A DNA stretch of 64,000 nucleotides from assembly GCA_001899145.1 (NCBI GenBank), contig MKVF01000028.1:1-64000 (forward strand), in the 5' to 3' direction. The notes under the pieces were generated by a model that saw only the letters and a program-made list of their open reading frames with translations, had not been told where the DNA came from and did not search any database. A program made the translations under genes and the position numbers. This DNA comes from Flavobacteriia bacterium 40-80 (GTDB lineage: Bacteria; Bacteroidota; Bacteroidia; Flavobacteriales_D; Crocinitomicaceae). This document shows, piece by piece, positions 891 through 27,393 of this stretch (position 1 is its first letter; each line of letters starts with the position of its first letter).

Positions 891-900
891 AAATTGTTCT

Positions 901-2471: not shown

Positions 2472-2473
2472 GT

Positions 2474-3376
2474 CTATAAGCTCTGGTAATGTTTGATGTC
2501 TGCTCTTATTGATTTCAATCTGAGCGGATATGTAATGTTGTACAATAATAGCACAATAGGGGAAATAATCCACAAAGCAAATAGTAAATAATATTTAAAA
2601 AATGTCACCCATCGTTTCCTGTTTGTTTTTTTCGTCAGGATCTTTTTTGACCAGAAGCTGAAGATTTTATTTGCTGTCCGGTCCACAATGATTAAAAAGG
2701 GTTTTATCTCAACCGCCTTTAAATCAATCAGCTGTTTTTGGAGTGAACTATAATTGTTTGTTAAAAGTGCTTGCAGAATCGGCTGTCCGAAACGTCCTGA
2801 TTCTTCAATATCTTTATCGGAAACGCCGGGTAAAGGAAAAAAACCCAGGTACCGGGTTTTCTTTCCGGAATACAGCCAGTGAACAATGGTAATAACGCTG
2901 GCGTAATTATTTGCCCGGTCCACCAGGGCGATGTGCCCGACACGTTCGGCGTTCAGGCGTTTGAAATGTTCTCCTGTTTTATCATGGGCTTTTGCCCACA
3001 TATTTCTGCAGGAGACTATTGATATTACTTTTCTTCCTGAAAGCAGCTTTTCTGCATATTCACTTTTCAGAAAGGAGACAACAGGCAGGGAAGGAGTAAG
3101 GTACCAAACCTGGTAGGAAAAAATGACCAGATCATAATTTCCATTCAGGATCTCCTCTGAAGGAGGAGTTATTTCCCGCGGTATTTGTTGAAAAGTTTCC
3201 GGAAATGCATCGAAGAAGGCTCCGCTGTCCCAGGGATAAGGAAACGGATCTTTAAGTGTAATTTCATAAAAGGAAACATGTACATCTTCATGATCGTACA
3301 GATCTCTGCATACCTGCTGCGCAATGACATTTGCCTGTGAGGTCTGGCTAAAAGAGATAATTAAAACGTTTTTCAT
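2474..3376 (-). CDS. darA: DarA-like dialkylresorcinol-forming enzyme (flavodoxin-like)
   Basis: 300 residues. The N-terminal half is flavodoxin/NAD(P)H-dehydrogenase-like: MKNVLIISFSQTSQANVIA gives the phosphate-binding loop (8-14), followed by YDLVIFSYQVWYLTPSLPV. A hydrophobic segment near residues 255-285 suggests membrane association. DarA proteins have been annotated as dialkylresorcinol condensing enzymes and as the aromatase that oxidises the DarB cyclohexanedione; a flavodoxin fold fits the oxidative role better. It sits directly upstream of darB in the same operon, 18 bases after the acyltransferase gene. Confidence 0.82.
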   Translation of the reverse strand: MKNVLIISFSQTSQANVIAQQVCRDLYDHEDVHVSFYEITLKDPFPYPWDSGAFFDAFPETFQQIPREITPPSEEILNGNYDLVIFSYQVWYLTPSLPVVSFLKSEYAEKLLSGRKVISIVSCRNMWAKAHDKTGEHFKRLNAERVGHIALVDRANNYASVITIVHWLYSGKKTRYLGFFPLPGVSDKDIEESGRFGQPILQALLTNNYSSLQKQLIDLKAVEIKPFLIIVDRTANKIFSFWSKKILTKKTNRKRWVTFFKYYLLFALWIISPIVLLLYNITYPLRLKSIRADIKHYQSL

Positions 3377-3394
3377 TCCTGTCTCAGCATTTGC

Positions 3395-4273
3395 TTACGG
3401 CCTGACATCCCAGAAATTATAGTAATTAAACCATTGATAAGGATATTTCTTTAAAATATCCTCCAGATTTTCGGTATATTCTTTCAGCAGACTTTCAGCG
3501 TTTCTGTGGATAAATTTAGCTCTTCTGGCGTAAAGATGGTAATGTTTGTCGGTTTCTTTCATCACATACACAAACAGGACAGGGACATTCAGACGGGAAG
3601 AGATCATGAATGGCCCGGCCGGGAAATGTGCGTTTTTTCCCAGAAAAGACGCTTCTAACGTTTTGGTTTTAGGAAAAAAGCGGTCCCCGGTAAATACGAT
3701 GGTTTCATTTCTGGAAAGCACGCTGTTGATTTCGAAAATATGAGACATGTCTTCCCGGACATAGATCATCCCGGTCTCATTCTTTTTAAAAACAGAATCC
3801 AGATAGTTTTTGATAGCTGTGTCTTCCTGATCTGTTGTTATGATGTTAATTTTAAAGTCATCGTTAAGTTCGGAAAGAAAGTACCTTGAAATTTCAAAAT
3901 TTCCTACGTGCGCACTGATCAATACACTTCCTTTATTTTCATGAATTGTATCAATGATGATCTGTTTTCCGTCAAACTCGTACGTAAATTGATTTCTTTG
4001 CCCGGCAGCGATAGCTACCTTGTCTATAATCGTCTTTCCAAAAACAAGATAGCTTTTATAAATAGCTTTTCTTGCTTTTCCATGAGAAAAACCTAATCGG
4101 TCTTTGAAGTATTCGTAGATGGCTTTATTGCTTTCTTTCTGAAATAAGAAATAATAGCCGGCAACAAAATAAAGCAGCCAGTAGGCAGAACGAACGCCTA
4201 AGTTTTTAATTAAAAAAACAAAAATCTTGTAGCCTAAAACGGTACCTTTGGATCTACCGTCCCAACTTGCCAT
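3395..4273 (-). CDS. LpxL/HtrB-family acyltransferase of the pigment operon
   Basis: 292 residues, with an N-terminal hydrophobic segment (about 27-45) anchoring it to the inner membrane. The H-x4-E catalytic motif of lipid A late acyltransferases is visible as His122...Glu127 in AHVGNFE, and a later FTGDRFF and FPAGPF context matches the family. In a pigment operon next to an ACP it is unlikely to acylate lipid A. It is a candidate for transferring the polyene acyl group from ACP to the dialkylresorcinol hydroxyl, forming the flexirubin ester; that step is inference. Housekeeping lipid A acylation cannot be excluded. Confidence 0.8.
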   Translation of the reverse strand: MASWDGRSKGTVLGYKIFVFLIKNLGVRSAYWLLYFVAGYYFLFQKESNKAIYEYFKDRLGFSHGKARKAIYKSYLVFGKTIIDKVAIAAGQRNQFTYEFDGKQIIIDTIHENKGSVLISAHVGNFEISRYFLSELNDDFKINIITTDQEDTAIKNYLDSVFKKNETGMIYVREDMSHIFEINSVLSRNETIVFTGDRFFPKTKTLEASFLGKNAHFPAGPFMISSRLNVPVLFVYVMKETDKHYHLYARRAKFIHRNAESLLKEYTENLEDILKKYPYQWFNYYNFWDVRP

Positions 4274-4293
4274 TTTTAATATTTATAAAGGAT

Positions 4294-4542
4294 TTACGGG
4301 TTCATTTTAGAACCGATGCAGTTATAGAAGTCTTCAAAAGTGGTAATCCCGGCAAAATCAGCCTCTCCTAATTTTACGCCGAAATCAGCCTCGATGGCCA
4401 CAACCAGATCGACATAGTCAAGACTGTCTAACCCCAATGTTTCCCTAAGATTCGCTGTTCCGGAAATTTTATTCCCATCCACTTCAAACTCCTCCACTAA
4501 AATCTCATTCACTTTTTCCTGAATAGCTGTAATCGTGTTCAT
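4294..4542 (-). CDS. Acyl carrier protein of arm A
   Basis: 82 residues, acidic, four-helix ACP type. The 4'-phosphopantetheine site is Ser40 in GLDSLDYVDL. It carries growing acyl chains for the neighbouring ketosynthase, reductase and dehydratases. Three bases separate it from the upstream ketosynthase gene, and 20 from the acyltransferase gene downstream. It differs clearly from the second ACP in arm B, so each arm supplies its own carrier. Confidence 0.93.
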   Translation of the reverse strand: MNTITAIQEKVNEILVEEFEVDGNKISGTANLRETLGLDSLDYVDLVVAIEADFGVKLGEADFAGITTFEDFYNCIGSKMNP

Positions 4543-4545
4543 ATT

Positions 4546-5769
4546 TTACTTTAATTTCTTAATAACCAATGCGGAATTGGTCCCTCCAAACCCGAAAGAA
4601 TTGGACAAATATAGGTCAAAATTGACATTTTTTGTGAATTTCACTAAATTTAATTTGCCTGAGAACTCATCTGTTTCCTCCAGATTAATGTTTGGAGCAA
4701 CAAAATCATTTAACATCATTAAATTGGAATAGATAATCTCACTGGCTCCTGCCATCCAGCATTCATGCCCTGTCATGGATTTTGTGGAGCTGACATAAGG
4801 CCGGCTCGCCCCGAAGACATAATCGATCGCTTTGGCTTCGTTTGCATCGCCGACAGGTGTGGAAGTCGCATGGGCATTTACATACCGGATTTCTTCCGGT
4901 TTCACATTGGCTGCCTTGAGTGCTTTCAGCATGGCATTTGCCGGTCCGTCGACATTTGGTGTGGAAATATGTCCTCCGTTGGAGGAAAAACCGTATCCCA
5001 GAACTTCTGCAATGATCGGAGCTCCTCGTTTTACGGCACTTTCATAATCTTCGAGAATAACCGTTGCACCACCACCACTGGGAACAAGCCCTGTTCGGTT
5101 CTTATCGAACGGCCGCGAGGCTTTTGTGGGATCAACATCGTCCGGAGCAAAAACACCTAATCCGTCAAAGCTCGCCATAGCGTACTCATTGATTTCCTGC
5201 GCACCTCCGCAGATGACCATGTCCTGTAATCCGCTCTGGATCATCAGAAATCCAAGCCCGATCGAATGGGAACCGCTGGCACATGCCGCGCTGATGGTCA
5301 TGTTGATTCCTCTCAGCGGGAAAATAGTTGCCAGATTCATCGTAACCGTGGAATTCATGGATTTGAAAATGGCTCCGGAACCCAAGAGACTGGTATCTTT
5401 TTTTATACGTACGGTATCTGTGGATTCAATAACGGCTCTTGCAACGCTGTCATTTCCATACAAAATACCGACTTCGTTTGCTTCAAAATAACTCTCATCC
5501 AATTGTGCGTTTTTTAACGCCTCGATAGTTGCCATGTAGGCATATTCGGTTTCTTCACCGATGGAAATGCGTTGTCTTCTGTTCAGAAGGTTTTTAAGGT
5601 CCGGCCGGGGAACCATTCCGGTCAGCGCGGACTGGAATCCGAACTCTTTGCGATGCTCATCGAAAATAATACCGGATTTTCCTTCATATAAGGAATTTCT
5701 TACTTCGTCCAGCGAAGTTCCTATACAGGAATAAATTCCCATTCCGGTAATGACCACTCTTCTTTTCAT
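4546..5769 (-). CDS. 3-oxoacyl-ACP synthase (FabF/KAS II type)
   Basis: 407 residues, the normal length for FabF. All three active-site residues are visible: Cys163 (SAACASGS), His300 (NAHATSTP) and His335 (SMTGHECW). It extends an ACP-bound chain with malonyl units in type II fashion. It lies between FabG-type reductase (0-base gap) and ACP genes, so it is a dedicated pigment elongation enzyme. Whether it makes the polyene or the fatty chains for DarB cannot be read from the sequence. Confidence 0.92.
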   Translation of the reverse strand: MKRRVVITGMGIYSCIGTSLDEVRNSLYEGKSGIIFDEHRKEFGFQSALTGMVPRPDLKNLLNRRQRISIGEETEYAYMATIEALKNAQLDESYFEANEVGILYGNDSVARAVIESTDTVRIKKDTSLLGSGAIFKSMNSTVTMNLATIFPLRGINMTISAACASGSHSIGLGFLMIQSGLQDMVICGGAQEINEYAMASFDGLGVFAPDDVDPTKASRPFDKNRTGLVPSGGGATVILEDYESAVKRGAPIIAEVLGYGFSSNGGHISTPNVDGPANAMLKALKAANVKPEEIRYVNAHATSTPVGDANEAKAIDYVFGASRPYVSSTKSMTGHECWMAGASEIIYSNLMMLNDFVAPNINLEETDEFSGKLNLVKFTKNVNFDLYLSNSFGFGGTNSALVIKKLK

Positions 5770-6501
5770 TTACGAATAAATTCCACCGTTAATATTTATT
5801 ACTTCTCCTGTGATATATCCTGCTTTTGGCGAGGCGAGGAAAGAAACCAGATCGGCAACTTCTTTGGCCTCTCCGAAACGATTGGCAGGGATCATTTTCA
5901 CCAGCTCTTCTTCGTTCAGCTCAGCTGTCATATCGGTTTTGATGAAGCCGGGAGCAACAGCATTTACTGTTATTTTCCGTTTCGCTACTTCCTGTGCCAG
6001 TGCTTTTGTTGCACCGATAACCGCAGCTTTCGCAGCGGAATAGTTTGTCTGTCCTGCCGTTCCTTTTACACCGGAGACAGAAACGATATTGATGATGCGT
6101 CCGTATTTGTTCCGCAGTAATTTCTGAATGAAGAAATTCGTTACGTTATAAAATCCGTCCAGGCTGATGCTCAATACATCTTTCCAGTCATTTTCGCTCA
6201 TCCACATGAACAGGCCGTCACGGGTAATTCCGGCATTGTTGACAATAACTTCGACTAATGCACCGGGATTTTGCTCCTGCCAGTTACCCAAAACAGCATT
6301 CGTCATCTTGCTGTCCGCGACATTGAACTTTAAGAGTTCTCCTGTTCCGCCGGCTTCCCGGATCTGTGTTAGGGTTTCCTCCGCGGCGGCATCGTTTCCC
6401 TGGTAGTTTACCAGGATATGATAGTCGGTTTCCTTTGCGAAATTCAGGCATATTTCACGCCCGATACCTCTTGAGCCTCCTGTTACAATTACACACTTCA
6501 T
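5770..6501 (-). CDS. 3-oxoacyl-ACP reductase (FabG-type SDR)
   Basis: 243 residues, classical short-chain dehydrogenase. It has the NADPH loop TGGSRGIG (7-14), the NNAG motif (88-91), and the catalytic Ser (141 or 143), Tyr154 and Lys158 (YSAAK). It reduces 3-oxoacyl-ACP after each ketosynthase cycle. Its stop abuts the start of the ketosynthase gene exactly. It is the only ketoreductase seen in either arm, so it probably serves all extension cycles of the aryl polyene. Confidence 0.92.
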   Translation of the reverse strand: MKCVIVTGGSRGIGREICLNFAKETDYHILVNYQGNDAAAEETLTQIREAGGTGELLKFNVADSKMTNAVLGNWQEQNPGALVEVIVNNAGITRDGLFMWMSENDWKDVLSISLDGFYNVTNFFIQKLLRNKYGRIINIVSVSGVKGTAGQTNYSAAKAAVIGATKALAQEVAKRKITVNAVAPGFIKTDMTAELNEEELVKMIPANRFGEAKEVADLVSFLASPKAGYITGEVININGGIYS

Positions 6502-6533
6502 ACACTTTGAATATAGATAGCAGGTTGATTATT

Positions 6534-7646
6534 TTATTCCTGGAAAAATTCTGCATTTTCGAACCAGATGTTTCCGAGAACACTTCCGTCAGGTTTTATA
6601 AAACCCCATTTTTTATCTTTTTTTACTCTCGCCAGATTTCCGATGAAACCTTTTTCTTCTCCTTTGAATATACCAAATCCAAAACCGGTAATTTCATATT
6701 CCGCGGCAATAACCAATACACCTTTTGTATCAAGGAATCCCCAGCCTTTTATTTTGACGGGAGCCAGGCCATTGTCTCCGAACACTTCCGCATCAGGGTA
6801 AGATGGTTTTATGATCAATGTTCCGGTTTCGTCACAGTATCCCCATAATTTGCCGATACGAACCGGAGCAAGCCCTTTGTTAAAAGCTCTTGCGGCTTCG
6901 AACTGAGGTTCGATCACCCATTTCCCTGTTTTGTCAATAAAGCCGATTTTCCCGCCTTTCCGGGCGTATGTTAAATGACTTTTGCCGAAATCCCAGATCT
7001 TATCTGCTCCTTCGACTTTATTGAAAGACGTTTTGTCGATCACACCAAAGACTTCTCCTTCTCTTGCCCAGGCAGTGTTATTATTGTAATCGCCTATTTC
7101 ATCGTATTTGCATTCAATGACAGGTGTTCCTTTAGTATCGATGACACCCCATTTTTCACCAAATTTGACACGGGCAAATCCTCCCTGAAAAGGTTTGATC
7201 ACATCGTATTTCGGGGCGAGGATAATTGTTCCTTCGGTATTGATCAGCCCCATTTTTTCATTCTGACGAATGAATGCTACTCCGTCCCCAAAATCAAAAG
7301 GCTTGTCAGAAGCCGGAAAATTCAGCTGTTCTCCTTTTTTATTGATGTAAAACCATTTTTTATCTTTTTCTACAATGCAGATTCCGGAATTAAAGTATCT
7401 GACATTAGTATAAGCCGGACGGATCACCCATTCTCCTTTTTTATCGATAAAGCCGAACAGCCCGTTTTCCAGTACTGCAGCGACGCCATCTGAAAAATTT
7501 TTGGCAACAATGTATTTGGATTCAATGACAAATTTACCCTCTTTGTCAATATAGCCGAATTTACCGCTTGTTCTTACCAGCGCCAATTCCTGTCCCAGGC
7601 ACCAGGAGCCCAAGGCAAGGAAAAAAAGTAAAAATATTTTTTTCAT
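6534..7646 (-). CDS. Exported WG-repeat protein inside the pigment operon
   Basis: 370 residues with a signal peptide (MKKIFLLFFLALGSWCLGQ). The rest is a run of WG repeats of the form GxIDKxGxWVI-P-Y, roughly nine copies (for example GYIDKEGKFVIESKY, GFIDKKGEWVIRPAY, WGYCDETGTLIIKPSY). WG-repeat proteins are beta-rich secreted or periplasmic proteins of uncertain role. It sits between tyrosine ammonia-lyase (18 bases) and FabG (32 bases) on the same strand, so it is co-transcribed with pigment genes. A role in pigment handling at the envelope is a guess from position only. Confidence 0.85.
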   Translation of the reverse strand: MKKIFLLFFLALGSWCLGQELALVRTSGKFGYIDKEGKFVIESKYIVAKNFSDGVAAVLENGLFGFIDKKGEWVIRPAYTNVRYFNSGICIVEKDKKWFYINKKGEQLNFPASDKPFDFGDGVAFIRQNEKMGLINTEGTIILAPKYDVIKPFQGGFARVKFGEKWGVIDTKGTPVIECKYDEIGDYNNNTAWAREGEVFGVIDKTSFNKVEGADKIWDFGKSHLTYARKGGKIGFIDKTGKWVIEPQFEAARAFNKGLAPVRIGKLWGYCDETGTLIIKPSYPDAEVFGDNGLAPVKIKGWGFLDTKGVLVIAAEYEITGFGFGIFKGEEKGFIGNLARVKKDKKWGFIKPDGSVLGNIWFENAEFFQE

Positions 7647-7664
7647 ATCCGTTTAATAAATCGG

Positions 7665-9185
7665 TTAATAGTTCTTCAAAAAGTCGGTGACGTCTTTAAT
7701 TTTCTCATACAATGGAGCATCCTCGCTGAAAACAGGAATGATCGCCCGGATCTGCCGGTAAAGATTAGCGGAGCTGGCAGACAACTTGTTTTCCGCATTT
7801 AAGTAATCCACTGCCTGAGAAATGGTGATCAGCTCAATGGAAATTACCTGAAACGCATTTTCAATTACTTTAGACGCAATTACGGCAGCATTGGTTCCCA
7901 TGCTTACAATATCCTGATTGTCATTATTGTTGGGGATGCTGTGCACGTACATCGGGAAAGAAAGCGTTTGTGATTCAGCTGTTGTCGAAGTAGCCGTGAA
8001 CTGCGCTCCCTGCATTCCGAAATTAAAGCCAAGCTTTCCTAAGTTCACAAACGGAGGGAGAATTTCGTTGATTTTAGAATTCAGCAGGTAGTTCAGCTGT
8101 CTTTCCGCCAGCATGGTCAGCTTGGTGATGGCGATCTTCAGCTTGTCCATTTCCAGCGCCACGTAGTCTCCGTGAAAATTTCCGCCGTGATACACATTTC
8201 CGGAAGCAACATCTATGATCGGGTTGTCGTTTGCGGAATTAAATTCATTCTCAATAACGTTTCCGGCATTCCGGATGGTCTCATAAACGGGACCTAATAT
8301 TTGCGGAACACATCTCAGAGAATAATATTCCTGTACTTTATCTTTGAATACTTCCTCCTGGTTTTCACCGGAATAAAGATGCTCAGCACGTTTCCGGATC
8401 AGCTTGCTGTCCGAAATGATTTCTCTCATTTTCAGCGCGACATACTGCTGTCCTTTGTGCAGCTTTACACGGTTAAGCTCGTCGGAAAGGTGATCGTCGT
8501 AAGCTTCAACGATCTCGTTGATGATGGAGGAAACTTCGATCATCAGCTGCAGCAGGCGTTCCGCCTGTCGGACGTTCACTGCTCCGATCCCGGTCATTAC
8601 GGATGTACCGTTCATTAACGCAAGCCCTTCACGGATCTCTACGTTAATAGGCTGAAGACCTTCTGCTTTCAGCACGTCCTGCGTCTTGCGTCTTTCACCT
8701 TTGTACCATACCTCTCCTTCGCCGATCAGCGTAAGCGCTAAGTGGGCGAGCTGGACAAGATCTCCGCTTGCGCCGACACTTCCGTGCTCAAAAATTAAAG
8801 GAGTGATATCGCGGTTTAAAAATTCTTTGATCAGATGGATCACCGAAGGATGAACGCCTGAATTCCCCAGCGACATGGAATTTAATCGCGCCAGCATGGC
8901 TGCTTTGACAAATTGTACAGCAAGAGGATTTCCCGTTCCTGTGGAATGGCTTCTGATCAGGTTGTATTGTAATTGTCTGGTGTTCTGGTCTTCGATCCGG
9001 TATTGCGCCATCGGCCCGAAACCGGTGTTTACGCCGTATATGATCTTGTTCGTTGAGAAATCTTTCAGGAAATGAAAGCTTTTCTCAACACGTTCCTGTA
9101 CTTCTGTACTGATCCCGATCTTCTGACCGTTAAAAATGATATCAGTGAAATCAGTATAAGTAAGGTAATTATTGATGTATTTCAT
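7665..9185 (-). CDS. Tyrosine ammonia-lyase (MIO enzyme), aryl starter supply
   Basis: 506 residues, aromatic amino acid lyase family. The MIO cofactor forms from Ala139-Ser140-Gly141 (SVGASGDLVQ), and the catalytic Tyr50 lies in YGVNTGFGP. The pocket pair is Ser79-His80 (IRSHSTG), which by itself resembles histidine ammonia-lyases. However, the whole sequence strongly recalls the F. johnsoniae tyrosine ammonia-lyase, as I remember it, which carries the same pair. Pigment context supports conversion of tyrosine to 4-coumarate, the head group of flexirubin. It is the first gene of arm A, with a TAACTTTG promoter box 29 bases upstream. Confidence 0.87.
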   Translation of the reverse strand: MKYINNYLTYTDFTDIIFNGQKIGISTEVQERVEKSFHFLKDFSTNKIIYGVNTGFGPMAQYRIEDQNTRQLQYNLIRSHSTGTGNPLAVQFVKAAMLARLNSMSLGNSGVHPSVIHLIKEFLNRDITPLIFEHGSVGASGDLVQLAHLALTLIGEGEVWYKGERRKTQDVLKAEGLQPINVEIREGLALMNGTSVMTGIGAVNVRQAERLLQLMIEVSSIINEIVEAYDDHLSDELNRVKLHKGQQYVALKMREIISDSKLIRKRAEHLYSGENQEEVFKDKVQEYYSLRCVPQILGPVYETIRNAGNVIENEFNSANDNPIIDVASGNVYHGGNFHGDYVALEMDKLKIAITKLTMLAERQLNYLLNSKINEILPPFVNLGKLGFNFGMQGAQFTATSTTAESQTLSFPMYVHSIPNNNDNQDIVSMGTNAAVIASKVIENAFQVISIELITISQAVDYLNAENKLSASSANLYRQIRAIIPVFSEDAPLYEKIKDVTDFLKNY

Positions 9186-9213
9186 TTAAAATAAATGGCT
9201 TTATTAGTGTCTG

Positions 9214-9221
9214 CAAAGTTA
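9214..9221 (-). promoter_or_regulatory. -7 box of arm A (TAACTTTG)
   Basis: Exact TAnnTTTG match on the minus strand, 29 bases before the ammonia-lyase start. With gene spacings of 32 bases or less down to 432, it could drive all of arm A. Confidence 0.55.
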
Positions 9222-9276
9222 TATATTTCAGTAATAAATAAAAAGTAATTATAAGTAAGCATTACAGAAAAAAAAG

Positions 9277-9284
9277 TACTTTCG
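9277..9284 (+). promoter_or_regulatory. Possible -7 box of the FAD enzyme (TACTTTCG)
   Basis: Seven of eight positions consistent with TAnnTTTG, 26 bases before the start at 9310, in the divergent intergenic region shared with the arm A promoter. Confidence 0.3.
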
Positions 9285-9309
9285 TAATAATATTAATTCT
9301 TCTCATACG

Positions 9310-10554
9310 ATGACCACTCAGAAATACGACGTGCTTGTAATTGGAGCAGGACCTTCCGGGAGCGTTGCCGCTTCCTACTTACATAACAATGGCATTAAGG
9401 TAAAAGTTGTTGAAAAGACGAAGTTTCCCCGCTTTGTGATTGGGGAGAGCCTGATTCCCAGGGTGATGGACAACTTCCAGGAAGCCGGGTTGCTGGACTG
9501 CGTTATGGACAAAGGTTTTGAAAAAAAATTCGGAGCACGTTTTATCCGGAACAATAAGGAATTCTGCCTTTTTGATTTCAGTGAGAAATACGGAGAAGGG
9601 TGGAGCTGGACCTGGCAGCTTCCGCGTGCGGATTTTGATAATGAGCTGATCCAGGAGTGCATTCGTAAAGGCGTGGATGTTTCTTTTGAAACGGAAGTGA
9701 TCGATGTAAAGTTTAACGGGAAAAAATCAACAACAACTATAAAGGATAAGGACGGGCAGATCTCAGAGATAGAAGCCAATTTTATCATTGACTCAAGCGG
9801 TTATGGCCGGGTGCTGCCGCGATTGCTTAACCTTTCACAGCCTTCCACGGTGACGGAAAACTCATCTATTTTTACACATGTGAAAGAAACCAACCGCCCG
9901 GTGAAAGGAAGAAGAGAGGCAATGACAATTACGTTTGATATTCTTGAAACGAAGGTATGGATCTGGGTGATCCCATTTTCAAACGGGAATACGAGCCTTG
10001 GCGTTGTTGGCCCTACTTCCTATATCAATTCGCTGCATGAGGATCCGGCAGAGGCTTTAAGGATCGCTTTCCGGCAGTCGGATGAATACCGGGATCGTTT
10101 TGAAGGGTATGAGTTTCTGTTTGAACCGAAAAAGATTGAAAATTACTCCTGTGCGGTGAAAGAAATGTGCGGACCCGGATTTACATTAACAGGAAACAGC
10201 GCTGAATTTTTGGATCCTGTTTTCTCTTCAGGAGTTTGCTTTGCAACAGAATCCGGTTTGCTTTCGGCAAAATTGTACCTGAAGGAGCATAATGGTGAAG
10301 AAGTGGACTGGCAGGCAGAATATGCGGATTATATTCAAAGAGGGGTCCGTACATTTGCTACGTATGTGAAAGAATGGTACACGGGTAATTTACAGACCTT
10401 ATTTTTCCACCGTCCTGAAAATCCGGAGGTGAAGGAAAAGATCTGCTCGGTGCTGGCGGGATATGTCTGGGATTTAAGTAATCCGTTTGTGAAAAAGCAT
10501 GATTCGGCGGTTAAGAACCTGGCTTATACTTTACAGATGCAGGAACAGGAATAA
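9310..10554 (+). CDS. FAD-dependent halogenase/monooxygenase-like oxidoreductase
   Basis: 414 residues. The FAD-binding GxGxxG is GAGPSG (12-17). Downstream are KFPRFVIGESLIP (38-50), a lysine in KKFGARF (Lys72/73), and WIWVIP (217-222), which fits the WxWxIP signature associated with flavin-dependent halogenases. Family relatives also include hydroxylases and geranylgeranyl reductases, so the reaction is open. Known flexirubins can carry chlorine on the aryl ring, which makes a halogenase attractive. It is divergent from arm A and is followed by a strong terminator, so it is a single-gene unit sharing the arm A control region. Confidence 0.8.
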   Translation: MTTQKYDVLVIGAGPSGSVAASYLHNNGIKVKVVEKTKFPRFVIGESLIPRVMDNFQEAGLLDCVMDKGFEKKFGARFIRNNKEFCLFDFSEKYGEGWSWTWQLPRADFDNELIQECIRKGVDVSFETEVIDVKFNGKKSTTTIKDKDGQISEIEANFIIDSSGYGRVLPRLLNLSQPSTVTENSSIFTHVKETNRPVKGRREAMTITFDILETKVWIWVIPFSNGNTSLGVVGPTSYINSLHEDPAEALRIAFRQSDEYRDRFEGYEFLFEPKKIENYSCAVKEMCGPGFTLTGNSAEFLDPVFSSGVCFATESGLLSAKLYLKEHNGEEVDWQAEYADYIQRGVRTFATYVKEWYTGNLQTLFFHRPENPEVKEKICSVLAGYVWDLSNPFVKKHDSAVKNLAYTLQMQEQE

Positions 10555-10656: not shown

Positions 10657-11982
10657 TTACTTCTCTTCTTTTGTGAATTTAATTTGTCCGCCGCCCTGAA
10701 ACAAGATCATTGTCTTATCTGAAGGGTTAAATTCAAATTTTGCTCCGGCCTGATCAAACTTGAATTTGTCTTTTTCTGTTGCTTCAAGCGCGAATGCCGG
10801 TTGCCCGGTAGCCTGCGCGATTAAAGTGTTCCCGTCTTTTGTAATGGTAATTTTCAACGCTATTTGTTTAGAGGTATATACGCCCAAGTATTTGTCCAGA
10901 TCTTCTGGAGTCAGGCTGTAAGTTGTGAATACGGGGATTTCGTAGGGCTTGTCGTAAACCGCGCTTAAAACAGCAATAGAAATATTGTTGTTATTGTAGT
11001 TTGTCCCGTTTGAAGTTAAAGCATAGGAAATATGTTCATCGGGGAAATAGGAAAATACAGAACTAAAGCCGTCAATACCGCCGGTGTGCCCATAGCCGAT
11101 ACTGCTGTAGAACGGCATCTGAAATAATCCGGACCCATAGCCGTCCTTTATTGTTTTCATTATTTCAAGGCTTTCGGCTTTCAGCAGTTTTCCGCTAAAC
11201 AAAGCATCCGCAAATTTTGTCAGATCGCCCGGAGTGGAAATGATCGCGCCGGCACCTAACGGAATGGTGAAATCTGTTTCGTCTTCTAATTTCCAGGTCC
11301 CCGCAAAAGTGTATGATCTGCATTCGTTTTTCTCGGGTTTGATCTTTCCAAAGACATACGTGTCGGTTAATCCTAACGGCTGAACGATGTATTCCTGTAA
11401 CAGGTCAGCATAGGATTTTGCAAACGTCTTTTCAAGAATGTAGGTTAAAAGCACAAAATTTGAATTGCTGTAGGCTGCTTTGCTGTCCGGCTTGAAGTCG
11501 CTGCCGCCTTTTGTAATGACAGCAACCATTTCTTTTTCGGTCTTTGGCTGAGTGTTCCATGTCAGATAGTCTTTGTCGTCTGTGAAATTGTGGATGCCGC
11601 TTCTATGGCTTAACAGCTGCTTAACAGTTATTTTCTTTGCATTTTTGATTGTTGGAAACCATTTGTCAATAGTTTGGTTGAGGTCTAATTTTTTTTCTTC
11701 AACAGCTTTTAAGATCAAAACCGTCGTAAACGTTTTTGAAATTGAACCGATCCTGTATTTAGAGCTTTCGGTTGCTTTAACGTTGTTTTCGACGTCAGAA
11801 AAACCAACAGTTTTTGAATAGATGATCTCTCCGTTTTTCGAAACAGCAACGCTTCCCATAAACTTGTTGTTTTCTTCAAGTGCGTTGAAGTAATTGTCCA
11901 ATTTGATTTTGTCAAATTTTTGAGCAAATCCGATGTGACCTAATGTCAAAAATAATGCTGTAATTAAGGTAGTTTTTATCAT
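10657..11982 (-). CDS. Secreted serine hydrolase, beta-lactamase/PBP4b family
   Basis: 441 residues with signal peptide (MIKTTLITALFLTLGHIGFA). The serine beta-lactamase fold motifs are visible: Ser80-x-x-Lys83 (SISK), Tyr171-Ser-Asn173 (YSN) and a later GHTGG loop. About 90 C-terminal residues follow the catalytic domain. Members are esterases, peptidases or penicillin-binding-like enzymes; the sequence does not show drug resistance. It appears to be monocistronic, separated from the neighbouring DUF4062 gene by about 185 bases of AT-rich DNA. Confidence 0.85.
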   Translation of the reverse strand: MIKTTLITALFLTLGHIGFAQKFDKIKLDNYFNALEENNKFMGSVAVSKNGEIIYSKTVGFSDVENNVKATESSKYRIGSISKTFTTVLILKAVEEKKLDLNQTIDKWFPTIKNAKKITVKQLLSHRSGIHNFTDDKDYLTWNTQPKTEKEMVAVITKGGSDFKPDSKAAYSNSNFVLLTYILEKTFAKSYADLLQEYIVQPLGLTDTYVFGKIKPEKNECRSYTFAGTWKLEDETDFTIPLGAGAIISTPGDLTKFADALFSGKLLKAESLEIMKTIKDGYGSGLFQMPFYSSIGYGHTGGIDGFSSVFSYFPDEHISYALTSNGTNYNNNNISIAVLSAVYDKPYEIPVFTTYSLTPEDLDKYLGVYTSKQIALKITITKDGNTLIAQATGQPAFALEATEKDKFKFDQAGAKFEFNPSDKTMILFQGGGQIKFTKEEK

Positions 11983-12167: not shown

Positions 12168-14795
12168 TTATGATTTTTTTGCACGATTAATAAGTCCCAT
12201 GTCGGGATTGTTTTTTTGATAAATATGTTTTGCTCGACATTTTTGAGCCAACAATTCAATTTGTCTTGATTCACTTTGTTCAGTAGCTCTATAGTTTTTA
12301 TTAAAATTTAAAGTCATTAGTACATCAGATAAGAAAAAAGAATTTTTGTCAAGACTTACAATATAGTCGTCAATGGTTCTATGCCAATTATTTGGTCTTT
12401 CTGCTATCAATAACAACATAATTTCATGTTTCAATAAAGTATTAGTTTCGGTTAAAGCCTTATCAATAAGTAATGGTCCCATTTTGCTTGAAAATAAGTC
12501 GTCCTTGAAGAACTTTACAATATTAGTTGGTACAGCAAGTAAAACAGCTAGTCGTTTTTGGAATGGATCATCAAAATTAAAATCTTCTTCATTTAGTTCA
12601 AATTTTGCTCCTTCAAACGCAACATTTCCTTTATCTGCCAAGAGAGGGTGAAGTATTATTAGGAGTTTATTAAGTTCATTCCAAGCCTGAGTAATTTTGT
12701 TTAACACTTCTTTCCTTAGATTCACGTCAACAAAGTCACTGTTGCGCAATGCCCTAGCTGTGGCAGTAATTTGTCGCATAAGCACCAAAAATGAGTAATC
12801 TCTTAAAACTGAGTTAATAACCTGATTGTAAGGTCTTATTTGATTATAATGTTTATCTGCATATTTATCTTTCACTTCATCGGGTAAGCCTGAAGAAATT
12901 ACATTTTCTTTTAATTTCTCCTGTTCTTTTTCGAGTTGTGGAACATCAGGATTCCATGAAATGGATTTATATGGATTAATATTATCAGGTATATTTACTT
13001 TGCTTCTCACAATTTTTAAGGTTTCATCTAAATCATTAATTAATATTTTTAATGCATCACTCTTATTTCTGTCAATTCCGGTATAAAACTCGATTATTTC
13101 TGGGTAGTCGATATATTTTTTATTTTCATAAACTTGATTTAGAAACTCAATGCTCATATTCATTCGATGTGCAATAAAGTAAAATACCCAATATGTGTTT
13201 CTAAAGTATAGGTAATTTGTGGTCGACTTGCTTAAAATTGAATTGTCAGTTAATAGACTAAGTAGGTAGTTAACATCTAAATCAATAAGACTTGATTTAC
13301 AAAATTCATTGATTTTGTTTTTAAAGAAATCTTCCTGAAAGTAAAAATCATTTTTGAGAACCAATAATTCACACAAATACCCCAAAACAAAGGTACAATC
13401 TTTTACATCTGGTTTTTTACTATGAAAAGTTGGTATTTCATAATCTTCAAAAATAGAATTGAGAATTGTTTCAAGTAATTTTGTTCTGTTAATAGGATTA
13501 TACTCCGAACCAATTTTATTGGATGCTCTTAAAATCGAAATACAATTTTTAGGCGTTCGATGCATATTTAAAGTTTCTAAGTCCTTTGCGACTTTGTCCA
13601 ACATCACGTTATAATCTTCTGCAATAGATTTATTTTTTGAATATACTGTAACTATTTTTCGTAGTTCATTTTGTGGAAGTGGTAAGAGATAAAGAGAAGT
13701 AAAAGATCTTTTTATTTCTACTTTATCATCATCTTGTGACTTTAAAAAGAAATTATTATCTAAAGTATTTAAAATAATTATCGGTGTGTGCTTAAATTCT
13801 TCACATATATTTTTGATCATTTGCATGATACCATTTTCTTCAAGACAAACGGAATCCAACAAAATACAATCAATTTTATCAGAATTAGTAAAATAATAAT
13901 TCTCAACTTCTCTTTTAATATGATTAACTATTTTGTGCTTTTTTGTTTTCTTGGAATCTACATAGAAAAATATTTTTCCATGCTTATAGGCTTCAAGTTT
14001 AATAAAATGTGCTAAACACGTTAACCCAAATTCTGAAGGTGCTTTTATGATAATATCAGAAGGACTTTGAATAATTGACTCAATTTCTATTTTATTTTCA
14101 AAGTTCTTACTTGGATTATTTGGAACTTCCTTTTTTGAACTAATTATTGGTTCAATCCAAATTGGGGATTTTTCGTTATAAGTTGTTAATGAATCCTCTA
14201 AATCGTTTTCAAGATGCTTTAAAACAATATCAATTTCTGATATTTTTTTTTCAGCATTTTCAATCTGAGCATTTTCCTTGATAAAAAGTTCTAATTTCTG
14301 CTTTAATTGTTGTTCGAAGTTATCAATTCCACTGTAGTCGACATATAGTCCTTCTGAAGAAATAGCAGACTTAAACACTTTAATTTTCTGATACTGTTCA
14401 AAATCAAATTTGTCTGGGTCAACGTTTTCTTTACCAAAGAAAAAGACAATCCGGGGTAATCCATTTTGTGCAATCTTCTTTCGTTCTAATGCATCATTAA
14501 ACTCGTGTTCAGTACCACTTCCGGCTTTTTTTGTAGGATGACCAAATCTATTTTTCATTATACCAATAAATACATCAAAGTCTGATTTTTTTATGTACTC
14601 ATCAATAATTTCTTGACCGTTTCTTCCCATATCAGGTAAAACATCATATTCCCACATGAATGTTTCAAGCCCAATACCAAAATGTTTTGCAAATCCAGAA
14701 TCTAGTTCGTTGATTACTTTTAAGCTAAGCTCTCTTTCTGTATTGCAATCACCTGGCGATGATATAAAGCATTTATATATTCTTCTTGTTTCCAT
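12168..14795 (-). CDS. DUF4062 plus degenerate STAND-like NTPase protein
   Basis: 875 residues. The N-terminal ~130 residues match DUF4062, a TIR-like fold (YKCFISSPGDCNTERE at 7-22, SDFDVFIGIMKNRFG at 71-85, SGTEHEFNDALE at 93-104). A coiled-coil linker (165-205) leads to a P-loop-like domain: the Walker A position reads KAPSEFGLTC (251-260), with GLT in place of GKT, and Walker B is IDCILLDSV (308-316). LYLLPLPQNELRKIV (368-382) resembles the end of a STAND ATPase. The remaining ~480 residues look alpha-helical. The gene is much more AT-rich than its neighbours and stands alone. Signalling or phage-defence function is inference. Confidence 0.7.
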   Translation of the reverse strand: METRRIYKCFISSPGDCNTERELSLKVINELDSGFAKHFGIGLETFMWEYDVLPDMGRNGQEIIDEYIKKSDFDVFIGIMKNRFGHPTKKAGSGTEHEFNDALERKKIAQNGLPRIVFFFGKENVDPDKFDFEQYQKIKVFKSAISSEGLYVDYSGIDNFEQQLKQKLELFIKENAQIENAEKKISEIDIVLKHLENDLEDSLTTYNEKSPIWIEPIISSKKEVPNNPSKNFENKIEIESIIQSPSDIIIKAPSEFGLTCLAHFIKLEAYKHGKIFFYVDSKKTKKHKIVNHIKREVENYYFTNSDKIDCILLDSVCLEENGIMQMIKNICEEFKHTPIIILNTLDNNFFLKSQDDDKVEIKRSFTSLYLLPLPQNELRKIVTVYSKNKSIAEDYNVMLDKVAKDLETLNMHRTPKNCISILRASNKIGSEYNPINRTKLLETILNSIFEDYEIPTFHSKKPDVKDCTFVLGYLCELLVLKNDFYFQEDFFKNKINEFCKSSLIDLDVNYLLSLLTDNSILSKSTTNYLYFRNTYWVFYFIAHRMNMSIEFLNQVYENKKYIDYPEIIEFYTGIDRNKSDALKILINDLDETLKIVRSKVNIPDNINPYKSISWNPDVPQLEKEQEKLKENVISSGLPDEVKDKYADKHYNQIRPYNQVINSVLRDYSFLVLMRQITATARALRNSDFVDVNLRKEVLNKITQAWNELNKLLIILHPLLADKGNVAFEGAKFELNEEDFNFDDPFQKRLAVLLAVPTNIVKFFKDDLFSSKMGPLLIDKALTETNTLLKHEIMLLLIAERPNNWHRTIDDYIVSLDKNSFFLSDVLMTLNFNKNYRATEQSESRQIELLAQKCRAKHIYQKNNPDMGLINRAKKS

Positions 14796-15096
14796 TTAGT
14801 CGGAGTTTATTTGTCTTTTAAACTTAATACCTAACTTATTTAGGCATATAATTTTTCCTATACTTATTGTACAATCATCTTTTGGCTGCGTATAGTTTCT
14901 TACTTTTCCAAATTTATAATAATTTCACAAAAATAACTGTAAACGAGTAGATTAAAATACGCAGAAATTTTTTTATAAATATATAGATACGCTCAAAAAC
15001 AAAAACGCCCCGAAATTTCTTCGGGGCATTTGTTTTCTTATTGGTTGAAACTAATTCCGTATCAGAAAAGTGAATGGAACTTCAACAACATCTTAA
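14796..15096. other. Intergenic, AT-rich
   Basis: About 300 bases between the DUF4062 gene and nrdA. It holds a TAAATTTG match on the minus strand (14909-14916), a possible promoter for the DUF4062 gene, and the nrd terminator at 15007-15027. No gene seen. Confidence 0.6.
15007..15027 (-). terminator. Terminator of the nrd operon
   Basis: Stem GCCCCGAA (15007-15014) with TTCGGGGC (15020-15027) and a 5-base loop; on the minus strand it is followed by GTTTTTGTTTTT. It lies 70 bases after the nrdA stop. Confidence 0.85.
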
Positions 15097-16785
15097 TTAT
15101 GATTCACAGCTGCTACAGCTAACCAAGCCGGTTACCAGCTCTTTGGAAACACTCTGGCTGCGTTGGTAGTACAGTGTTTTCACACCCAGTTTCCATGCTT
15201 CAATGATCAGCTTGTTTACTTCTTTGATAGGCAGTTCCGCAGGGATATTTAAATTAAGGCTTTGCGCCTGATCCACGTATTTCTGGCGGATGGAAGCCTG
15301 CTGAACGATTTCCAGCTGGCTGATTTCCTTGAACGTTTTGAAAACCGCCTTTTCCGTTTCGTTCAGCTCTTTCAGGTGCTGTACACTTCCGTGGTTCAGC
15401 ATGATGCTTCTCCAGGTGTCCTCATTGTCAATCCCTTTTTCTTCCAGCAGTTTTCTCAGGTATTTGTTTTTACGCATGAAGTTTCCTTTTGCCAGTCCCG
15501 CTTTATAATAATTGGAAGCAAACGGTTCGATTCCCGGAGAGGTTTGCCCTAAAATGGCGGAAGAGGAAGTTGTCGGCGCAATTGCCATTGTGGTCGTGTT
15601 ACGTCTTCCGTATCCTTTCAGTAATTCCGGTTCTCCGTAAATACGTGCCAGCTCCTGTGTTGCTTTTTCCGTTTTATCGTGTAAATGACTGAAGATCTCA
15701 TTCGTCAGCTGCTTTGCTTCAAGGCTTTCGAACGGAATCATGCATTTTTGCAATAAAGAGTGCCATCCTAAAACACCTAGGCCGAGTGCACGGTGGCGTT
15801 TTGCGAATCTGTTGGCTGCCTCCAGGTAGTAATTCCCTTCCGTTTTGGCAATAAATTCCTGTAAAACAGCATCTAAGAAGAAGGTCGCTAATTTTACAGC
15901 TTCCGTATCTTTCCATTCGTCATACAGCTCTAAGTTCATGGAAGACAAACAGCAGATAAAAGATTCATCAGTAGTGGACGGAAGCATGATTTCCGAGCAC
16001 AGGTTGCTCGCGTTGATTCTCATGTTCAGGTCCTTGTAAACCTGAGGCTTGTTTCTGTTGACGTTGTCAGAGAAGAAAATGTACGGTAAGCCTTTTTGCT
16101 GGCGACTTTCCAGCACCTTTGCCCAAAGTGCGCGTTTTTCCGGATCCCCGTCGATCATTTCCTGCATCCAGTAGTCAGGGACACAAACTCCGAAGAATAA
16201 ATTCTGGATCGGGTTTCCGATATTTTTGATCTGCAGGAACTCTTCACAATCCGGATGGTCAATATCCAGGTAAGCAGCAAATGCGCCACGGCGTACACCA
16301 CCTTGTGATATCGTATCCATTGCCGTATCGAATAATTTCATGAAGCTTACGGCACCGCTGCTTTTCCCGTTGTCGGTTACAGCGCTTCCGCGCGCACGAA
16401 GGTCTCCGAAATAACCGGAAGTCCCGCCGCCTGTTTTGGTTTGCATGATCACTTCGCCCAGCTTGTGGGTAATGGATTCGATGCTGTCCGGCATATGCAC
16501 ATTGAAGCAGGAGATCGGCAAACCTCTTTCTGTTCCCATATTTGCCCAGATCGGAGAGCTTAAGCTCATCCATCCGCGTTCGATCATCTCCTGAAATGCT
16601 TCTTTCAATTCCGGTTTATACAAACGCTTGGCAGCGGCCTCACATACACGTTCAATCGCACCTTCAACGGTTTCTCCCTTCAGGAGATAGCCTCTGTTCA
16701 GGATTTGCTCGCTTTCTGAATTTTTCCACCACAATCGCTCCATTGTTCCGCTTGTTTGAGTTGTTTCATTTATTTCTGGTTCCAT
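15097..16785 (-). CDS. nrdA: Class I ribonucleotide reductase catalytic (alpha) subunit, short form
   Basis: 562 residues, shorter than typical NrdA (about 750). It begins directly at the catalytic barrel region without an N-terminal ATP cone. Active-site residues are visible: Cys93 (PISCFN), Asn261-Cys263-Glu265 (NLCSE), Cys278/279, the Tyr pair in TLYYQRSQ, and the C-terminal redox pair in CSSC (about 557-560). It reduces ribonucleoside diphosphates with electrons from thioredoxin-like donors and the radical from NrdB. It is the last gene of a three-gene operon. Without the cone it should lack dATP activity inhibition. Confidence 0.93.
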   Translation of the reverse strand: MEPEINETTQTSGTMERLWWKNSESEQILNRGYLLKGETVEGAIERVCEAAAKRLYKPELKEAFQEMIERGWMSLSSPIWANMGTERGLPISCFNVHMPDSIESITHKLGEVIMQTKTGGGTSGYFGDLRARGSAVTDNGKSSGAVSFMKLFDTAMDTISQGGVRRGAFAAYLDIDHPDCEEFLQIKNIGNPIQNLFFGVCVPDYWMQEMIDGDPEKRALWAKVLESRQQKGLPYIFFSDNVNRNKPQVYKDLNMRINASNLCSEIMLPSTTDESFICCLSSMNLELYDEWKDTEAVKLATFFLDAVLQEFIAKTEGNYYLEAANRFAKRHRALGLGVLGWHSLLQKCMIPFESLEAKQLTNEIFSHLHDKTEKATQELARIYGEPELLKGYGRRNTTTMAIAPTTSSSAILGQTSPGIEPFASNYYKAGLAKGNFMRKNKYLRKLLEEKGIDNEDTWRSIMLNHGSVQHLKELNETEKAVFKTFKEISQLEIVQQASIRQKYVDQAQSLNLNIPAELPIKEVNKLIIEAWKLGVKTLYYQRSQSVSKELVTGLVSCSSCES

Positions 16786-21968: not shown

Positions 21969-22964
21969 ATGCAGATCGACTTCAAACATCATCAATCAGG
22001 GCACTGCGAAAACGGTGTTGCATCCAATCTCCTTATTTACAAAGGTATAAATATTTCCGAACCAATGGTGTTCGGGATCGGAGCCGGACTGTTTTTTGTA
22101 TATCTTCCCTTCTTAAAAGTGAATTTCGCACCGGGGTTCAGTTTTCGTCCGATGCCGGGCGTTATTTTCAACCGTGTAGCAAAACAGCTGGGAATAAAAA
22201 TTAAACGGACTAAATTCAAAAATCCGGAAGACGCTCAGAAAGCACTGGATGAAAACCTGAAGAACAATATTCCTACAGGCCTTCAGGTCGGAGTATATCA
22301 TCTTTCCTATTTTCCGGATGAATACCGTTTTCATTTTAATGCACATAATCTGGTCGTTTTCGGGAAAGAAGGAGATAATTATCTCATTTCGGATCCGATT
22401 ATGGGAGAGACAACGACACTGACTTCCAGTGAGCTGGAAAGAGTCCGTTTTGCAAAAGGCGTGCTTGCCCCCAAAGGGCACATGTATTATCCGATAGCTT
22501 TTCCCAAAGAGATCAACTGGGAGAAAGCGATCCGGAAAGGAATCAAAAAAACCTGCTTTTTCATGCTGGCAAAAGCGCCCATTGTAGGAGTGAGAGGGAT
22601 TCGTACCGTAGCGAAAAATATCCGCAAATGGCCGGAGAAAATAGGAACAAAAAAGACCAATCATTACCTGGCGCAACTGGTGCGGATGCAGGAAGAGATC
22701 GGTACCGGCGGTGGCGGTTTCCGCTATATTTATGCCGCTTTTTTACAGGAAGCTTCCCGAGAGCTGAATATGCCGGTATTATTTGAAATGTCAAAAGAAA
22801 TGACGCATGTCGGAGATTTATGGCGTGAATTTGCCATCAATGCCTCGCGGATTTTCAAAAACCGGGCTTCTGCCGGAAACACATATAATCAGCTTGCAGA
22901 TGATTTGCTGAAAATCGCTGATCTGGAGGAAGATTTTTTTAAACGGTTGAATAAATTGTTTTAG
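21969..22964 (+). CDS. BtrH N-terminal domain protein (DUF4872-type C-terminus)
   Basis: 331 residues. The N-terminal part is papain-like: GHCENGVASNLL contains the candidate Cys14, and FHFNAHNLVVFGKEGDNYLISDP supplies a His and a downstream Asp. This matches BtrH, which transfers an acyl group from a carrier protein in butirosin biosynthesis. The C-terminal half is helical (DUF4872-like). In a flexirubin locus it may move an acyl chain between ACP and acceptor; that is inference. Start is 3 bases after the preceding stop. Confidence 0.75.
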   Translation: MQIDFKHHQSGHCENGVASNLLIYKGINISEPMVFGIGAGLFFVYLPFLKVNFAPGFSFRPMPGVIFNRVAKQLGIKIKRTKFKNPEDAQKALDENLKNNIPTGLQVGVYHLSYFPDEYRFHFNAHNLVVFGKEGDNYLISDPIMGETTTLTSSELERVRFAKGVLAPKGHMYYPIAFPKEINWEKAIRKGIKKTCFFMLAKAPIVGVRGIRTVAKNIRKWPEKIGTKKTNHYLAQLVRMQEEIGTGGGGFRYIYAAFLQEASRELNMPVLFEMSKEMTHVGDLWREFAINASRIFKNRASAGNTYNQLADDLLKIADLEEDFFKRLNKLF

Positions 22965-22973
22965 AACAGCAAC

Positions 22974-23729
22974 ATGATGAACCCGATTATTGAAATAAGC
23001 AATTTGTCTAAACAATATCTTCATTCCGAACATATTGCGGTCAATCAACTTTCCTTTTCCATTTATGAAAAGGAGATTGTCGGCATTATCGGGCCCAACG
23101 GTGCGGGAAAGACAACGCTTATTTCCATGATGTGCGGATTGATAAAACCTTCCACGGGAAGCATCAGAATTTATGGGTCAACCTACGATAACAACGAGCA
23201 GCGGATTCGTCAGAACATAGGTGTGGTTCCGCAGGATTTCGCACTCTACCCGACACTGACTGCCGAAGAAAACCTGATTTATTTCGGAAGCATGTGCGGG
23301 CTGAAAGGAAAGGAGCTGAAAGATAAGGTTGAAGCGTCTTTAGAAAAAGTCGGCCTGCTGGAATTCCGGAATAAAAAAATTTCCACTTTTTCAGGCGGAA
23401 TGAAACGGCGGATTAATCTGCTGGCAGGATTGCTTCACCAGCCGAAGATCCTTTTTCTGGATGAACCTACGGTCGGAGTGGACATCCATTCTAAGAAGAA
23501 AATAATTGAGTTCCTGAAAGAAATCCATCAAAACGGAACCAACATTATTTATACTTCTCACCACCTGTTGGAAGCAGAAGCATTGTGCACTCGTATTCTG
23601 ATCGTGGACAACGGAAAGATCCTGACACAGGGCTCGCCGCAGCAATTAATCCAATCCATTTCCGGAGCGGGAAATCTGGAAGATGTTTTTATTACACTCA
23701 CAGGAAATTCGTTGCGTGATGTTTTATAA
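22974..23729 (+). CDS. ABC transporter ATP-binding protein
   Basis: 251 residues, a complete ABC ATPase: Walker A GPNGAGKTT (about 38-46), Q-loop VPQDFAL, signature FSGGMKRR, Walker B ILFLDEP, and switch His in TSHH. The DRA/NodI-like appearance and separate permease fit a type II (ABC-2) exporter. With the permease encoded next it probably exports a pigment precursor or lipid across the inner membrane. It begins 9 bases after the BtrH-like gene, and its end overlaps the permease start by 11 bases. Confidence 0.93.
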   Translation: MMNPIIEISNLSKQYLHSEHIAVNQLSFSIYEKEIVGIIGPNGAGKTTLISMMCGLIKPSTGSIRIYGSTYDNNEQRIRQNIGVVPQDFALYPTLTAEENLIYFGSMCGLKGKELKDKVEASLEKVGLLEFRNKKISTFSGGMKRRINLLAGLLHQPKILFLDEPTVGVDIHSKKKIIEFLKEIHQNGTNIIYTSHHLLEAEALCTRILIVDNGKILTQGSPQQLIQSISGAGNLEDVFITLTGNSLRDVL

Positions 23730-26529: not shown

Positions 26530-26530
26530 T

Positions 26531-27130: not shown

Positions 27131-27132
27131 AA

Positions 27133-27390: not shown

Positions 27391-27393
27391 TCC

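What the first reader, a model, noticed from the sequence alone, without database searches (positions are those of the whole stretch)
12168..14795. AT-rich solitary DUF4062-STAND-like protein, possible single-gene defence system
875 residues combine a TIR-like DUF4062 head, a P-loop domain with GLT instead of GKT in the Walker A position (251-260) yet a good Walker B (308-316), and a long helical C-terminus. Base composition is distinctly more AT-rich than the neighbouring genes. TIR/STAND fusions are common in antiphage defence (Avs-like, TIR-STAND). The degenerate Walker A suggests an altered nucleotide-handling or structural role.
Basis: partly seen in the sequence, partly recalled or inferred. 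Interest (0 to 1): 0.6.

Follow-up and report, generated by a model that had tools for sequence, protein, structure and literature searches.

The report
Bacterial immune receptor with altered nucleotide loop
A solitary, horizontally moving bacterial gene encodes an NLR-like, probably anti-phage receptor that joins an NAD+-destroying TIR-like head to a NACHT switch; in its whole family the lysine normally needed to hold ATP has been replaced by a strictly conserved leucine, which suggests an unusual way of switching.

Summary
In detail: one 875-codon ORF (12168-14795, MINUS strand), 29% GC against 41% for the rest of the window, with a DUF4062 head, a P-loop domain reading APSEFGLT where GxxxxGK[ST] is expected, an intact Walker B and a helical C-terminus. 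Head: TIR-like; its invariant Glu98 aligns with catalytic E97 of the anti-phage NADase Swarozyc (KpSwz). Middle: NACHT-like (NLRP3/NLRC4/NOD2), homologous to the NACHT body of the validated anti-phage protein DS-8. The same body carries other heads elsewhere (trypsin, metallophosphatase, TIR). Close homologs (57-78%) are scattered over Bacteroidota (6 of 240 genomes of the family have a match), often AT-richer than their neighbours, several beside Kiwa, CBASS or restriction genes. The lysine-less loop is not decay: 15 proteins with two different heads form one clade (100/100) that shares it, it is among the best conserved stretches, and synonymous sites are near saturation. Twelve relatives outside keep a basic residue. 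Best reading: a single-gene abortive-infection NLR whose NACHT switch does not use the canonical P-loop lysine. New variant of a known kind; anti-phage activity and the nucleotide question are untested.

The parts
12168..14795 (-). DUF4062-NACHT-helical protein gene, 875 aa
   Evidence: 57-78% full-length homologs
14268..14780 (-). TIR-like DUF4062 head, residues 6-176
   Evidence: Pfam; VIA-align Z 9-11.5 to 7m5h, TIR-STING, SPARTA TIR-APAZ, Cat1; profile match to KpSwz 10wc, E 5.2e-4
14502..14504 (-). codon of Glu98, predicted catalytic residue
   Evidence: invariant in 15 DUF4062 heads; aligns with the E97A position of KpSwz chain 10wc (PMC13174449)
13620..14255 (-). NACHT/STAND P-loop domain, residues 181-392
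   Evidence: VIA-align Z 10-11.5 to NLRP3, NLRC4, NOD2
14019..14042 (-). altered Walker A loop APSEFGLT, residues 252-259 (K to L, first G to A)
13851..13868 (-). Walker B CILLDS, residues 310-315
   Evidence: alignment
13173..13331 (-). region after the NACHT core, residues 489-541, matching PF24406 nSTAND_NTPase4
   Evidence: E 1.1e-5, 25.9 bits, just under the cut-off of 27; 31.5 bits, over cut-off, in the genome search
12171..13160 (-). helical C-terminal part, residues 546-875, putative sensor
   Evidence: AlphaFold2 models; only weak helical-repeat-like matches
15003..15031 (-). terminator-like hairpin behind nrdA, upstream of the gene (the gene starts about 210 bases further on)

Best explanation
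A single-gene, NLR-like abortive-infection protein. Resting state: the TIR-like DUF4062 heads are held inactive by the NACHT-helical body. A phage component (unknown; a structural protein such as portal is a reasonable guess from KpSwz) binds the helical C-terminal part; the NACHT core and the region behind it assemble into an oligomer; the heads are aligned, Glu98 hydrolyses NAD+, and the infected cell stops before phage release. Unlike its relatives, this clade switches without the canonical P-loop lysine: the loop is kept as AxxxFGL[T/S], so nucleotide is either not bound or held in another way, and assembly is driven mainly by trigger binding and protein contacts. Shown here: domain make-up, catalytic-Glu alignment, homology of the body to DS-8, head swapping, a single origin and purifying selection of the loop, horizontal spread, defence neighbours of homologs. 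Inferred: NADase activity, anti-phage effect, trigger, oligomerisation, the function of the loop.
For: Head: DUF4062, TIR-like fold, profile match to KpSwz with Glu98 on its mutated catalytic position; KpSwz is a proven portal-activated NADase acting by abortive infection (PMC13174449). Body: NACHT fold; members of the clade match NCBIfam DS8_antiphage by the body (L053 6.5e-12, L015 7.1e-10, L044 1.9e-7), and L058, over that model's cut-off (928.6 against 790), is in the same family tree; in DS-8 a residue thought critical for NACHT ATPase activity is essential (PMC13092281). Heads on this body: DUF4062, trypsin, metallophosphatase (Pfam), TIR as annotated on plasmids. Mobility and context: a match in 6 of 240 family genomes; gene GC 29-40% beside neighbours at 44-64% in L002-L004; Kiwa KwaA-KwaB directly upstream in L055 with an integrase nearby; type I RM and CBASS around L044, CBASS near remnant L045; type IIG RM and a PtuA-like ATPase in L010. 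Loop: clade 100/100, one change, 15 rows against 12; APSEFGL invariant in 13 proteins with varied synonymous codons, dN 0.14-0.34 with dS 2 to saturated.
Against: No experiment on any member of this clade. The window's protein itself does not match the DS-8 model; the link runs through clade members and a profile-to-sequence alignment of low probability (E 0.0011). The full-length model is of modest confidence (pLDDT 63.6, pTM 0.39), so oligomer and active-site geometry are untested. In this genome the neighbours are not defence genes.
Confidence: 0.72

Rival explanations
1. The NACHT domain is a normal ATP/ADP switch: another basic residue (such as K251, just before the loop, or K266) takes over from the missing P-loop lysine, and the K-to-L change is a tolerated variant. 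The defence reading stays the same.
For: Walker B Asp and the loop's last Gly and Thr/Ser are kept; K251 and K266 are invariant among the ten closest sequences; the fold still matches nucleotide-bound NACHT structures.
Against: K251 is S in L012 and L in L015, K266 is N in L015, while GL[TS] is kept in all 15; the first Gly of the loop is also lost.
Confidence: 0.3
2. The NACHT domain is a dead NTPase turned into a ligand or nucleic-acid sensor, like the inactive STAND domains proposed for BREX BrxB.
For: Precedent of inactive STAND domains in defence (PMC12839542); loss of the key lysine.
Against: Those inactive domains are described as fast evolving and without Walker motifs; here the loop is one of the best conserved stretches and Walker B stays.
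Confidence: 0.2
3. The gene is a decaying or silent remnant of a mobile element with a degenerate NTPase.
For: AT-rich, solitary, promoter-like signals no more frequent than in shuffled sequence.
Against: Intact ORF; low dN with near-saturated dS over the clade; invariant loop and Glu98.
Confidence: 0.03
4. It serves a function other than phage defence, such as anti-plasmid defence, competition or regulated cell death under stress.
For: No trigger is known; the copy here is chromosomal-looking and without defence neighbours; one homolog is itself on a plasmid.
Against: Both halves have relatives proven in anti-phage defence; neighbours of several homologs are anti-phage systems.
Confidence: 0.12

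Closest known systems
Swarozyc, KpSwz (PMC13174449)
   Same: DUF4062 TIR-like head with the catalytic Glu; single gene
   Different: KpSwz carries a short winged-helix auxiliary domain that reads phage portal (326 residues in the solved chain); here a NACHT-helical body of about 690 residues
DS-8 (DefensePredictor, PMC13092281; NCBIfam NF053861)
   Same: single protein, homologous NACHT body, exchangeable N-terminal effector
   Different: metallophosphatase head; its relative over the NCBIfam cut-off (L058) has canonical GKT; here DUF4062 head and GLT
PADLOC candidate PDC-S60
   Same: head matches PDLC05050 (1e-41), body matches PDLC05051 (4.5e-20)
   Different: L057, a full-length PDLC05050 match (1373 bits), has GKT and a body far away in the tree; the query matches neither model over its length
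Human TEP1/NWD1/NWD2/NPHP3 (as described in PMC13174449)
   Same: DUF4062 next to a NACHT domain, then helices
   Different: no WD40 or other known C-terminal domain found by Pfam here; bacterial
Inactive STAND of BREX (BrxB/BrxF, PMC12839542)
   Same: P-loop domain in a defence protein without the canonical Walker A
   Different: there Walker A and B are gone and the sequence evolves fast; here the altered loop is strictly kept and Walker B remains

Membership tests
DUF4062 / Swarozyc | DUF4062 fold with catalytic Glu | tested here: met
   (Glu98 on the E97A position of 10wc)
DUF4062 / Swarozyc | KpSwz-type auxiliary (portal-reading winged-helix) domain after the head | tested here: not met
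   the match to KpSwz covers chain residues 4-156 only; the body profile finds no KpSwz match
DUF4062 / Swarozyc | NAD+ hydrolysis and portal-triggered abortive infection | not testable with these tools
   needs biochemistry
DS-8 (NF053861) | NACHT body homologous to DS-8 | tested here: met
   clade members L053, L015, L044 match the body; the query itself gives no direct hit; the tree holds them together with L058, over the cut-off
DS-8 (NF053861) | metallophosphatase head, score over 790 bits | tested here: not met
   head is DUF4062; no NCBIfam match of the query
PDC-S60 (PADLOC) | full-length match to one PDC-S60 model | tested here: not met
   head 4-205 to PDLC05050, body 212-703 to PDLC05051 only
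STAND/NACHT NTPase | NACHT-type P-loop fold | tested here: met
   Z 10-11.5 to NLRP3/NLRC4/NOD2
STAND/NACHT NTPase | Walker A GxxxxGK[ST] | tested here: not met
   APSEFGLT in the query; AxxxFGL[TS] in the whole clade
STAND/NACHT NTPase | Walker B acidic residue | tested here: met
   D314 aligned with the Asp of all but one of the relatives in the alignment (L046 has it too; the Asp column is kept throughout)
Avs (AVAST) | match to Avs models of PADLOC | tested here: inconclusive
   only PDC-S60 models matched at E up to 10; distant kinship not excluded

The most novel reading that the evidence does not exclude
A clade of bacterial NLR-like immune receptors whose NACHT switch works without the P-loop lysine, through a fixed alternative loop AxxxFGL[T/S], and which nonetheless exchanges effector heads (TIR-like NADase, trypsin-like protease): lysine-independent, perhaps nucleotide-independent, STAND activation.
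Probability: 0.4. Interest if true: 0.7.

Novelty: new variant of a known kind. Interest (0 to 1): 0.5.

Why it matters
Nucleotide binding through the P-loop lysine is regarded as the core of STAND/NLR switching, and in the relative DS-8 a residue thought critical for NACHT ATPase activity is essential. A natural clade that fixed a lysine-less loop, kept it under strong selection and still swaps effectors gives a direct natural test of whether NLR assembly needs canonical nucleotide exchange. It also gives a bacterial counterpart of the DUF4062-NACHT order of human TEP1 and NWD1.

Tried and rejected
Phage records and viral contigs: no relatives, so no sign of phage carriage. PDB by sequence with the query: nothing useful. 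Shared flanking sequence or transposon ends around the homologs: none among the 400-bp flanks, so how a lone gene moves stays unknown. Exact empty site: G013 and G006 share 72% and 70% DNA identity over nrdBA up to the nrdA stop or just short of it and lack the gene there, but the other flank is not syntenic, so no clean boundaries. Body-only profile over 296 phylum genomes: few hits. C-terminal part alone: pLDDT 68.5, best Z 8.6, not above the level expected for helical models; no viral match with E under 0.001. PDC-S60 is not named in the papers held. Pseudogene reading rejected. The hit in C6 of the own genome falls on a DnaA-like ORF (my reading of the sequence), not a paralog.

Full report
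Observation. The reported stretch holds one intact 875-codon ORF on the minus strand, present once in the 3.52-Mb, 32-contig genome. Its GC is 29.2% against 41.1 +/- 2.0% for other 2.6-kb stretches of the window, and GC3 is 22% against 36-53% for seven other genes. It lies between a ribonucleotide reductase alpha gene (15097-16785, minus) and a beta-lactamase-like serine hydrolase gene (10657-11982, minus).

Anatomy. Pfam sees DUF4062 at 9-102 (6.5e-8) and a weak nSTAND_NTPase4 at 489-541 (over cut-off in the genome search). PADLOC gives the candidate family PDC-S60: head 1e-41, body 4.5e-20, to two different models. An AlphaFold2 model from ten sequences is of modest confidence (pLDDT 63.6, pTM 0.39), but its first two domains match known folds: 6-176 TIR-like (Z 10.5 TIR-STING, 10.4 SPARTA TIR-APAZ, 9.6 Cat1) and 181-392 NACHT (Z 11.5 NLRP3, 10.3 NLRC4, 10.1 NOD2). 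The C-terminal 336 residues alone (pLDDT 68.5, pTM 0.69) look like a helical-repeat-type array without a specific match.

Head. A profile of 15 DUF4062 heads finds KpSwz (10wc, 11cq, 11cv) at E 5.2e-4; the profile position of the query's Glu98 falls on an Ala of that chain inside SFTEKAFDYA, which fits the E97A mutant described for these structures (PMC13174449; the numbering offset of 13 is my inference from a construct starting at residue 15 with one extra residue). Glu98 is invariant in all 15 heads, Glu96 is not. [quoted passage not shown]

Body. Relatives of the same body carry other heads: trypsin (L053, 36% identical to query residues 159-871), metallophosphatase (L014, L046, L058, L059 by Pfam; L081-L083 by annotation; L085, L086 by sequence), TIR (L080, L084 by annotation). 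L058 is over the cut-off of NCBIfam DS8_antiphage (928.6 against 790); clade members L053, L015 and L044 match the same model by the body at 6.5e-12, 7.1e-10 and 1.9e-7; the query itself gives no hit. DS-8 is an experimentally validated single-protein anti-phage system in which both the metallophosphatase and a residue thought critical for NACHT ATPase activity are essential (PMC13092281). A profile-to-sequence alignment lines up APSEFGLTCL with GADQSGKTSL (E 0.0011, low probability).

The loop. All 15 members of the query's clade read AxxxFGL[TS]: 14 with a DUF4062 head and one with a trypsin head. All 12 relatives outside keep a basic residue (GKT/GKS, one GKK, one GRT). In a maximum-likelihood tree of the NACHT core the lysine-less proteins are one side of a branch with 100/100 support, one change, in all 200 bootstrap trees; long branches between the clades are a caveat. 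Within the 13 closest proteins APSEFGL is invariant while its codons vary (four Ser codons, four Gly codons, four Leu codons); dN is 0.14-0.34 and dS 2.1-3.8 or beyond measurement. The 8-residue stretches starting at 251 and 252 rank among the most conserved of the protein. The change is therefore old, arose once as far as the data go, is shared across a head exchange, and is maintained by selection.

Spread and neighbours. 6 of 240 genomes of the same family, the window's own included, hold a match at E up to 1e-30, of which 4 are full-length at 64% identity or more. Close homologs occur in Crocinitomicaceae, Flavobacteriaceae, Chitinophagaceae, Fulvivirgaceae, Reichenbachiellaceae and on a Chryseobacterium plasmid, at different sites with no shared flanks. 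Gene GC is 40% where neighbours have about 64% (L002) and 29-33% where they have about 44-46% (L003, L004); in AT-rich hosts such as L009 and L010 the difference vanishes. Neighbours: KwaA and KwaB (Kiwa) directly upstream and a tyrosine integrase nearby (L055); type I RM with a CBASS cyclase and 4TM effector (L044); type IIG RM and a PtuA-like ATPase (L010); Fic (L003); an FRG/PDC-S15 protein (L060); a remnant beside a CBASS cyclase on a Pseudomonas plasmid (L045). The window's own copy has no such neighbours.

Mechanism. Most likely an abortive-infection NLR: trigger sensing by the C-terminal helices, NACHT-driven assembly, NAD+ loss by the TIR-like heads. What is new is the switch. Three readings remain: lysine-independent switching (preferred), compensation by another basic residue (K251 and K266 are candidates but are not kept in L012 or L015), and a dead NTPase used as a sensor, as proposed for BREX BrxB, which however lost both Walker motifs and evolves fast (PMC12839542).

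Verdict. The protein is neither Swarozyc nor DS-8 nor a full PDC-S60; by its anatomy it works like a fusion of the first two. New variant of a known kind.

Noticed in passing
window 14795-15097; L002 before 8001; L006 28-756: In three of about 13 clade members (window, L002, L006) the gene sits just behind a ribonucleotide reductase alpha gene on the same strand; in the window it follows a terminator-like hairpin. The window's nrdA is only 29-36% identical to the other two, so at least two separate placements. L002 is the query's sister in the tree.
   Followed up: partly
window 432-10554 and 21969-31960: Ketosynthases, dehydratases, an aromatic amino-acid ammonia-lyase-like protein and an FAD halogenase-like protein look, by reading, like a flexirubin/aryl-polyene-type pigment cluster; nrdAB and the finding's gene lie between its two halves.
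   Followed up: no
window 33353-34360 and 34669-35703: Two tandem paralogous secreted proteins with the same C-terminal part (LPVQLTKF...), in a stretch of 34-36% GC.
   Followed up: no
L053 406-3099: A trypsin-like protease fused to the lysine-less NACHT body: a protease-headed NLR-like candidate defence protein, preceded by a 101-aa ORF.
   Followed up: partly
L055 7718-11740: KwaA, KwaB and the DUF4062-NACHT gene in one row, about 35 bases apart at the last junction, close to a tyrosine integrase: possibly one transcription unit.
   Followed up: partly
L021-L043 (mostly one family of the phylum, f29): Many genomes of one family (genera g99, g104) hold one or more DUF4062 proteins, many of about 1000-1400 aa, with other bodies: DUF4062 proteins look enriched there.
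   Followed up: no
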